Assembly (NCBI RefSeq): GCF_038069945.1
Contig: NZ_JBBPEV010000001.1
Span: 1,736,001-1,800,000 of the forward strand
Reading direction: 5' to 3'
From: Aquabacterium sp. A3
GTDB taxonomy: Bacteria; Pseudomonadota; Gammaproteobacteria; Burkholderiales; Burkholderiaceae_C
DNA length: 64,000 nucleotides
Both the position numbers and the translations under genes were made by a program. The notes below the pieces were generated by a model that saw only the letters and a list, made by a program, of their open reading frames with translations, searched no databases and was not told the DNA's origin. This document shows, piece by piece, positions 42,718 to 43,740 of the stretch (its first letter is position 1; every line of letters starts with the position of its first letter).

Positions 42718-43740
42718 ATGCCCAAGCTCTGGCAACGCCTGTGGGCGTGGTGGCAGCCCGTCAGTCGCCAGCGCTCCGGCGCAGCGTCTTTCGAGGTGCT
42801 GACCCAATGCATGCACATCCTCGACCAGCAGGTGCGCGAAGCCGAGCGCACCAGTCACACGGCCGTGCTGGAGATGGTGGCGCGACTGCAGGCCATTCAC
42901 GAGCGTTGCAACGCGCTGCAAGACGAGCTGGGATCGGCCACGCGCCAGTCGGGTCACCTGTCGGCCGACACGGTCCTGCAGGCTGAGGCGCAGCACCAGG
43001 CCCTGTCATGCCTGGGAGAGCAGGAGTCACGTTTCAAGGCCAGCCAGCAGGGGCACCAGCAGATGGTGCAAACCTTGTTGTCGCAGGTGGCGGCGCTGAC
43101 ACCCTCGGCCGAGCTGATCGCCGAAGTGGCGCGGCAGACCAACCTGCTGGCCATCAATGCCGCGATCGAGGCCGCCCGCGCCGGCCCCGAAGGGGCGGGC
43201 TTCAAGGTGGTGGCTCAAGAGGTGCGGCGCCTGTCCACCCAGACGGCGCAGGCCGCCGAAAGCATCACGGCCAGCATCCAGGCGATCGCCGACACGCACC
43301 AGCAAGCCTCGCAGCAAGAGCTGGCCGAATCCGTCGATCTGGCGGCGCTGGCACGCATTGGCGAAGGCATCCGCGACATGGGCACCCGCCCGGGCGTGGT
43401 GGCGTGCCAGCTCAAAGCCTTGTCTGAAGAGATGGAGGCCAGCATGCAGGACATCCGCCGTGACATGGTGGATGTGTTGGGCCACATGCAGTTTCAGGAC
43501 GTCAGTCGGCAATTGCTGGAGCGGGTCAGCCAGGCGCTGCAGGACATCGCCGGGCACCTGGCGGACGCCGGGCACCACTCAGACCCCACGACCACCGAGC
43601 GCGCCCAGGCCCTGAGACAGTTGCTGGACGACTGGCAACAAAGTTATGTGATGGACGCCCAGCGCACGGCCCACCAGCGGGTGACCACGCAGGCCGGAGT
43701 GACTCCCAGCGCAGCAGCGCCGACCATCGAATTGTTCTGA
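42718..43740 (+). CDS. Soluble receptor-tip protein with CheZ-like motif (copy 1)
   Basis: A 340-residue protein with no membrane span. Residues 30-130 and 165-250 are coiled-coil arms around a receptor hairpin tip at 134-176 (ARQTNLLAINAAIEAARAG, FKVVAQEVRRLSTQT). Residues 250-275 read DMVDVLGHMQFQDVSRQLLERV-like: D261 and Q265 repeat the Asp-x3-Gln pair of the CheZ catalytic helix (FQDLTGQ in E. coli). The C-terminus has a block WQQSYVMDAQRTAHQ and ends TIELF. The tip suggests docking to CheA/CheW, the motif suggests CheY dephosphorylation. It is seven bp after cheY copy 1 and is followed by a terminator. A plain cytosolic receptor is the alternative. Confidence 0.8.
   Translation: MPKLWQRLWAWWQPVSRQRSGAASFEVLTQCMHILDQQVREAERTSHTAVLEMVARLQAIHERCNALQDELGSATRQSGHLSADTVLQAEAQHQALSCLGEQESRFKASQQGHQQMVQTLLSQVAALTPSAELIAEVARQTNLLAINAAIEAARAGPEGAGFKVVAQEVRRLSTQTAQAAESITASIQAIADTHQQASQQELAESVDLAALARIGEGIRDMGTRPGVVACQLKALSEEMEASMQDIRRDMVDVLGHMQFQDVSRQLLERVSQALQDIAGHLADAGHHSDPTTTERAQALRQLLDDWQQSYVMDAQRTAHQRVTTQAGVTPSAAAPTIELF

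What the first reader, a model, noticed from the sequence alone, without database searches (positions are those of the whole stretch)
42718..43740. Receptor-tip protein with a CheZ-like Asp-x3-Gln helix next to a CheY
HMQFQDVSRQLLERV resembles the catalytic helix of CheZ (FQDLTGQ), whose Asp and Gln drive CheY dephosphorylation. With a receptor tip before it and an acidic-hydrophobic tail (TIELF) after it, this protein may place a phosphatase directly in the receptor array. Three paralogues in the window keep both residues.
Basis: partly seen in the sequence, partly recalled or inferred. Interest (0 to 1): 0.8.

Follow-up and report, generated by a model that had tools for sequence, protein, structure and literature searches.

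The report
Chemoreceptor with built-in CheZ-like phosphatase
This gene encodes a bacterial chemoreceptor-like protein that seems to carry its own off-switch for the neighbouring messenger protein CheY, which would explain a widespread group of receptor-like proteins whose job has been unclear.

Summary
P0001 (42718-43740) has a chemoreceptor tip (E 1.8e-21), MQFQDVSRQ with D261 and Q265, and the tail TIELF; two window paralogues keep D-x3-Q too. P0001 and its 120 listed homologues (of 573) all keep D and Q, 120 of 121 the tail. A profile of the C-terminal segment, tail excluded, recovered a wide family: of 59 loci examined, 59 keep D-x3-Q, 59 end in F, and 48 have CheY within 400 bp, against 1 of 31 ordinary chemoreceptors. 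Tip-to-Asp spacing is 110-115 residues in 57 of 57. Profile comparison with CheZ puts D and Q in register (score 34; 0 of 600 shuffles reach it), but the signal sits in the motif, so descent from CheZ is not shown. The third paralogue lies in an F7-type operon where McpA/CttP-like receptors sit; their conserved C-terminus was published as of unclear role, in systems with CheY but no CheZ. Most likely these are receptor-built CheY phosphatases. Activity and array placement are untested.

The parts
42342..42710 (+). CheY-like response regulator paired with the first DxxxQ protein (start inferred at MKTVLL)
   Evidence: Response_reg E 1e-25; 64% identical to the CheY beside the second paralogue, 32-34% to three other CheYs of the genome
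42718..43740 (+). MCPZ1 (P0001): soluble receptor-like protein with CheZ-like D-x3-Q segment
43060..43314 (+). chemoreceptor signalling tip (MCPsignal match, residues 115-199)
   Evidence: PF00015 E 1.8e-21
43486..43512 (+). MQFQDVSRQ: D261 (43498-43500) and Q265 (43510-43512)
   Evidence: D and Q in 121 of 121 (P0001 and 120 listed homologues)
43633..43674 (+). second conserved C-terminal element: W306, Y310, V311, Q315, H319
   Evidence: invariant columns of a 51-sequence alignment; Y, Q and H invariant in a 13-sequence wider one
43723..43737 (+). C-terminal tail TIELF, candidate CheY-docking peptide
   Evidence: pattern kept in 120 of 121 and 54 of 59 loci, 0 of 31 ordinary chemoreceptors
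53152..53517 (+). CheY paired with the second paralogue (GTG start inferred)
53535..54863 (+). MCPZ2: paralogue with an N-terminal hydrophobic region; MQFQDINRQ (D 54555-54557, Q 54567-54569), tail KIELF (start inferred)
   Evidence: 42% identical to P0001, E 4.9e-55
58507..59700 (+). MCPZ3: paralogue with degraded tip; FQFGDRVEQ (D 59497-59499, Q 59509-59511), tail RVEFF; first che gene of an F7-type operon
59717..60082 (+). CheY of the F7-type operon (start inferred)
60773..62992 (+). CheA of the F7-type operon; receptor, CheW, CheR, CheD and CheB follow, mostly beyond the window (L117)

Best explanation
P0001 is a chemoreceptor-shaped CheY phosphatase. Its chain is a long receptor hairpin. 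On the descending arm, about 110 residues past the tip, a helix presents D261 and Q265. As in CheZ, these would insert into phosphorylated CheY (the product of the adjacent gene) and align a water molecule that removes the phosphate. The C-terminal tail TIELF, on a variable linker, would dock CheY the way the CheZ tail does. Shown: motif, its invariance, fixed spacing to the tip, conserved tail, gene pairing with CheY. Inferred: catalysis, docking, and that tip contacts couple the site to a kinase array. The CheZ mechanism is recalled knowledge.
For: (1) D and Q kept in 121 of 121 and 120 of 120 listed sequences of two groups and in 59 of 59 loci, where the F and Q just before D vary. (2) CheY within 400 bp on the same strand in 48 of 59 such loci, 23 of 28 CheZ loci and 1 of 31 ordinary chemoreceptors (Fisher p 1.2e-13; rows are not independent). 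(3) The CheY neighbours of MCPZ1 and MCPZ2 are 64% identical to each other and 32-37% to the three other CheYs tested, as if the gene pair was duplicated together. (4) hhalign of the wide family (65 rows) to CheZ: probability 73.6%, P 2.9e-5, 65 columns, D and Q in register, 0 of 600 column shuffles reach it; ordinary receptor arms score 21 and align elsewhere. (5) The family profile, which holds no CheZ sequence, finds this genome's true CheZ at E 2.2e-4. (6) Pair and tail persist where the tip is degraded (MCPZ3) or absent (L102, L103, L105, L106, L108, L109; frames of 159-224 aa, all beside CheY). (7) Tails of 11 of 59 loci, several of one small family, match a FliM/CheZ-like pattern: VTQDEMDAGSVELF against this genome's CheZ tail NQSEVDDLLASLGF and FliM start LSQDEVDALL. 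(8) In F7 stages 1-2 the F7 cluster has cheY while only the F6 system includes cheZ (PMC7184735, passages).
Against: No activity or binding data. Masking F, Q, D and Q drops the hhalign score to 18.8 and loses the register; the close family alone scores 20.7, no better than ordinary receptors at 21-22.6. P0001 has no Pfam CheZ match at E up to 1; NCBIfam Phos_CheZ scores 14.7 (E 0.016, residues 229-277) against a cut-off of 350. CheZ is not among the fold rows shown. The FliM/CheZ-like tail is not present in P0001 itself and is missing from 48 of 59 loci. The genome also has a true CheZ. 11 of 59 loci show no CheY within 400 bp in a frame of at most 300 aa, among them the tip-less L078.
Confidence: 0.7

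Rival explanations
1. CheY sink or scaffold: the segment and tail bind CheY, or phosphorylated CheY, and hold it at the receptor without catalysis; D and Q are binding residues.
For: CheY gene pairing and conserved tail need only binding; no activity was measured.
Against: Both residues that act in CheZ, at the exact spacing, are kept in 59 of 59 loci while neighbours vary; pure binding would not obviously demand this pair.
Confidence: 0.15
2. The tail is a CheR/CheB tether like NWETF, and the conserved helix is part of an adaptation segment of an ordinary receptor.
For: TIELF has the form x-hydrophobic-E-x-F, close to the tether-like tails of ordinary receptors here (NWETF, DWESF).
Against: Position 2 is mostly I or V, not aromatic; a valine there in P. 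[quoted passage not shown] The tail pattern is found in 0 of 31 ordinary receptors and is present on tip-less proteins that still carry D-x3-Q.
Confidence: 0.08
3. The motif is a structural feature of the receptor coiled coil that resembles CheZ by chance.
For: A bare D-x3-Q occurs in 3 of 31 ordinary receptors in a comparable stretch; CheZ similarity is confined to the motif.
Against: Kept in tip-less proteins, and linked with CheY and with the tail.
Confidence: 0.07

Closest known systems
CheZ (PF04344), CheY-P phosphatase
   Same: FQD-x3-Q helix in register; chain ends in F on a linker; beside CheY; acts, by inference, on CheY
   Different: No match of P0001 to the Pfam model at E up to 1; embedded in a receptor hairpin with a signalling tip; the G before Q of CheZ is mostly R or S here; extra W/Y/Q/H element; detectable similarity sits in the motif
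McpA/CttP-like receptors of F7 chemosensory clusters (PA0180, VCA1088)
   Same: MCPZ3 and the Pseudomonas relatives occupy the same kind of operon (receptor, cheY, cheA, mcp, cheW, cheR, cheD, cheB); conserved C-terminus without the aromatic tether
   Different: Published without a CheZ-like motif or a phosphatase role in the passages seen; their sequences were not fetched here. MCPZ1 is soluble and lies in another type of cluster; MCPZ3 has a degraded tip and an N-terminal hydrophobic stretch that stays below the 1.6 threshold used, so a membrane anchor is not established
Methyl-accepting chemotaxis proteins (PF00015)
   Different: No sensor or HAMP domain matched in P0001; the D-x3-Q segment with the I/V tail was not found in the 31 ordinary receptors compared
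Small DxxxQ proteins beside CheY-CheA-CheW (this genome C1:902.5 kb = L115; L113)
   Same: FQD-x3-Q, tail SVELF, CheY neighbour
   Different: No receptor tip, frames of 159-180 aa; no Pfam family above its cut-off for the two small proteins scanned (L103, L106)
BB0569 family chemotaxis protein (NF052273)
   Same: Model matches the D-x3-Q region of relatives (E 1.5e-7 and 1.1e-6 for L052 and L053, 4.6e-4 for a small protein); gene cluster stated as cheB2-bb0569-cheY2 (PMC10703414 passage)
   Different: Scores far below the family cut-off; spirochete protein whose sequence was not examined here

Membership tests
CheZ (PF04344) | match to the curated model above its cut-off | tested here: not met
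   P0001: no CheZ row at E up to 1. Relatives: L053 23.9, L052 19.8, L063 17.5, P0058 14.9, P0084 14.1, P0028 6.6 bits against 30.7
CheZ (PF04344) | catalytic Asp and Gln four residues apart on one helix | tested here: met
   DXXXQ as the CheZ phosphatase motif is from passages of PMC7750401
CheZ (PF04344) | C-terminal CheY-binding peptide | tested here: inconclusive
   conserved terminal tail; FliM/CheZ-like pattern in 11 of 59 loci and 20 of 30 CheZ tails, not in P0001
CheZ (PF04344) | long hairpin forming a four-helix bundle in the dimer, as in CheZ | tested here: inconclusive
   model is a long hairpin but fits receptors; CheZ not among the rows shown
CheZ (PF04344) | accelerates CheY-P dephosphorylation | not testable with these tools
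   needs purified proteins
Methyl-accepting chemotaxis protein (PF00015) | conserved signalling tip above model cut-off | tested here: met
   77.2 bits against 34.6 for P0001; not met for MCPZ3, 17.4 bits
Methyl-accepting chemotaxis protein (PF00015) | methylation sites used by CheR and CheB | not tested
   no scan was made
McpA/CttP-like F7 receptor | gene in an F7-type che cluster | tested here: met
   MCPZ3 only: window 58507-62992 plus L117 has the gene order of L110 in full; L111, L112 and L114 share it in part. The F7 class was inferred from gene order, not from a CheA tree. MCPZ1 lies in a different cluster
McpA/CttP-like F7 receptor | conserved C-terminus without the aromatic tether motif | tested here: met
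   RVEFF, TIELF, KIELF; published absence of the tether motif in McpA-like sequences (passages)

The most novel reading that the evidence does not exclude
A widespread receptor type controls the off-step, not the kinase: each CheY of a multi-system cell has its own phosphatase built into a receptor or a small protein next door. This genome then has five such CheY pairs (one CheZ, three receptor-like, one small). In the F7 system, the class to which the E. coli system belongs, the McpA-like receptor was the phosphatase before CheZ was recruited, and its receptor body lets array state or a stimulus set the rate of signal removal.
Probability: 0.35. Interest if true: 0.88.

Novelty: new variant of a known kind. 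Interest (0 to 1): 0.76.

Why it matters
In stages 1 and 2 the F7 cluster has a CheY but only the F6 system includes CheZ, and the role of the McpA-like receptors in F7 clusters, with their strikingly conserved C-terminus, was published as unclear (PMC7184735, passages). A built-in CheZ-like site would answer both points with one testable claim, would give a function to proteins now mostly named only methyl-accepting chemotaxis protein, and would give a way for one cell to run several chemosensory systems without cross-talk at the dephosphorylation step.

Tried and rejected
Close-family profile alone against CheZ: P 0.034-0.093, no better than ordinary receptor arms, so not used as proof. Second AlphaFold job, on the Pseudomonas relative: mean pLDDT 56, too poor, not searched. 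Foldseek and VIA-align of the P0001 model: CheZ not among the 50 rows each showed; uninformative either way, and helical hairpins draw many unrelated rows. Scan of genome contigs with P0001: 6 loci, five of which have no match to the DxxxQ profile; the sixth (L015) has one in a 273-aa frame ending SIELF. DNA pattern search with up to 2 mismatches: 12 matches against 5.5 expected; the only two exact ones are the sites of MCPZ1 and MCPZ2. Ten literature searches in an open-licence library: in the listings and passages I saw no paper that describes a CheZ-like motif in a chemoreceptor; the library lacks most subscription journals, so absence from print is not established. The tail as CheR tether was considered and set low. 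Rows dropped: L063 and L104 fell out because my search expression missed their motif (both have it); L051 was dropped as a copy of P0001; 2 of 30 CheZ loci were not recognised by the seed model.

Full report
The thing itself. The open frame 42718-43740 encodes a 340-residue protein. Its only Pfam match above the cut-off is the chemoreceptor signalling domain at residues 115-199 (E 1.8e-21). MQFQDVSRQ lies at 257-265. In a 51-sequence alignment the invariant residues outside the tip include S46, A49, M257-Q258-F259-Q260-D261, R264, Q265, then W306, Y310, V311, Q315, H319 and the last residue F340. The gene starts 7 bp after a CheY gene. Two more proteins of the same make lie in the window: 53535-54863, after another CheY, and 58507-59700, before a CheY and a CheA. 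Between the first two lie a receptor with two tips, a triple CheW, CheB, a HEAT-like protein (by eye), CheR, CheY and CheA.

Conservation. Of 573 homologues of P0001 (E up to 1e-10), the tool listed 120; with P0001 that is 121, all with D and Q at the aligned columns and 120 with the tail pattern x-[IVLF]-[ETDSQ]-[LMFIV]-F; the exception, P0105, ends differently. A second search started from a Pseudomonas relative: 120 listed of 3276, all with D, Q and tail. Where a source gives a name, it is mostly methyl-accepting chemotaxis protein or chemotaxis protein.

Wider family. I built a 13-row alignment of the C-terminal segment without the tail; two of its rows had been noticed through weak CheZ-model matches and one is MCPZ3. 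It matched 125 of 398 genomes of the phylum and 35 of 41 relatives at E up to 0.001; these matches include true CheZ genes and were not all read, so they do not give the frequency of the family. I examined the 59 loci returned (L051-L109), the best-scoring ones only. One (L051) is P0001 itself, and many of the others come from its genus. All 59 have D and Q, all 59 end in F and 54 match the tail pattern. Of 31 ordinary chemoreceptors, 9 end in F, 8 of them as W-x-x-F, and none has the pattern; of 596 other frames of 200 or more residues, none has it. CheY lies within 400 bp on the same strand in 48 of 59, in 23 of the 28 recognised CheZ loci and in 1 of 31 ordinary receptors.

Relation to CheZ. 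The wide family (65 rows) aligned to 30 CheZ sequences gives probability 73.6%, P 2.9e-5 and 65 columns with D and Q in register; 300 column shuffles and 300 heptad-phase shuffles peak at 20.5 and 22.7 against 34.3. The shuffles do not correct for having recruited the rows with a profile that holds the motif. Without the two rows noticed through CheZ the score is 32.3. Masking D and Q leaves the same register at 22.7; masking F, Q, D and Q leaves 18.8 with the register lost. Ordinary receptor arms give 15.6-21 and 22.6 for a smaller set, aligned to other parts of CheZ; the close family of P0001 alone gives 20.7. So the likeness is beyond composition but lives in the active-site motif; descent from CheZ and convergence are both open. 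The profile finds this genome's CheZ at E 2.2e-4, and two relatives hit Pfam CheZ at 4.2e-5 and 8.2e-4, below the cut-off; those two were picked among 150 genomes for a weak CheZ match, which flatters the numbers.

Evidence that the site, not the receptor body, is what is kept. MCPZ3 and L086 have degraded tips. L102, L103, L105, L106, L108 and L109 (159-224 residues as stop-to-stop frames) have none. All keep D-x3-Q and a tail ending in F, and the six lie beside CheY in the test; another tip-less one, L078, does not. In one tail type, PVTQDEMDAGSVELF, the stretch before the end resembles this genome's FliM start LSQDEVDALL and CheZ tail NQSEVDDLLASLGF. That both bind CheY is recalled knowledge. 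The pattern is found in 11 of 59 tails (several of one small family), 20 of 30 CheZ tails and 31 of 667 frames of 200 or more residues (these include hits and CheZ genes).

Operon and literature. L110 reads DxxxQ receptor, CheY, CheA, receptor, CheW, CheR, CheD, CheB. L111 has DxxxQ receptor, CheY, CheA, CheW, CheR, CheB in a row, with a receptor and CheD on the other strand. L112 follows L110 as far as CheD, and L114 as far as CheW, within the stretch fetched. The window's MCPZ3, CheY and CheA continue in L117 with receptor, CheW, CheR, CheD, CheB. The closest homologues of the L110 protein are from Pseudomonas. I take this as the cluster type called F7. Ortega et al. 2020 (PMC7184735, passages) report that McpA-like receptors of F7 clusters are not needed for the F7 array, that a valine in the tail prevents CheR interaction, that the C-terminus is strikingly conserved with an important yet unclear role, and that in stages 1 and 2 only the F6 systems include cheZ. 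A review (PMC7534058, passages) treats VCA1088 and VC1394 as outliers of class 24H, with no experimental report on VCA1088. The link between those proteins and this family is my inference from gene order and tail; their sequences were not fetched.

Verdict. The most economical reading is a CheY phosphatase built into a receptor-like hairpin, each copy paired with its own CheY. I put it at about 0.7. It works like CheZ by inference; it is not filed as a CheZ member, because the family model is not met. Whether the receptor body regulates the site is unknown.

Noticed in passing
   Followed up: no
43822-45798: A 658-residue receptor-like protein has two chemoreceptor tips in one chain (QTNLLALNAAIEAARAG and QTNMLAVNGSIEAARAG) and three MCPsignal stretches.
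   Followed up: no
45863-47491: One protein with three CheW stretches (E 9.3e-99).
   Followed up: no
48519-49232: HEAT-repeat-like protein between CheB and CheR in the first che cluster (assignment by eye; no family search was run on it).
   Followed up: no
63008-64000: Receptor after the second CheA with repeated segments that look like HAMP repeats (by eye), running off the window; its tail SVDESSFGRF (L117) fits the aromatic tether form.
   Followed up: partly
L115:4472-5011: In the same genome, outside the window, a small tip-less DxxxQ protein (tail EMDAGSVELF) sits beside CheY, CheA and CheW.
   Followed up: partly
L052, L053 proteins: The spirochete BB0569 family model (NF052273) matches the receptor plus D-x3-Q region of relatives, far below its cut-off.
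   Followed up: no
L070, L075, L077: Longer proteins (574-668 aa frames) with D-x3-Q about 333-346 residues before the end, so the motif also occurs in other architectures.
   Followed up: no
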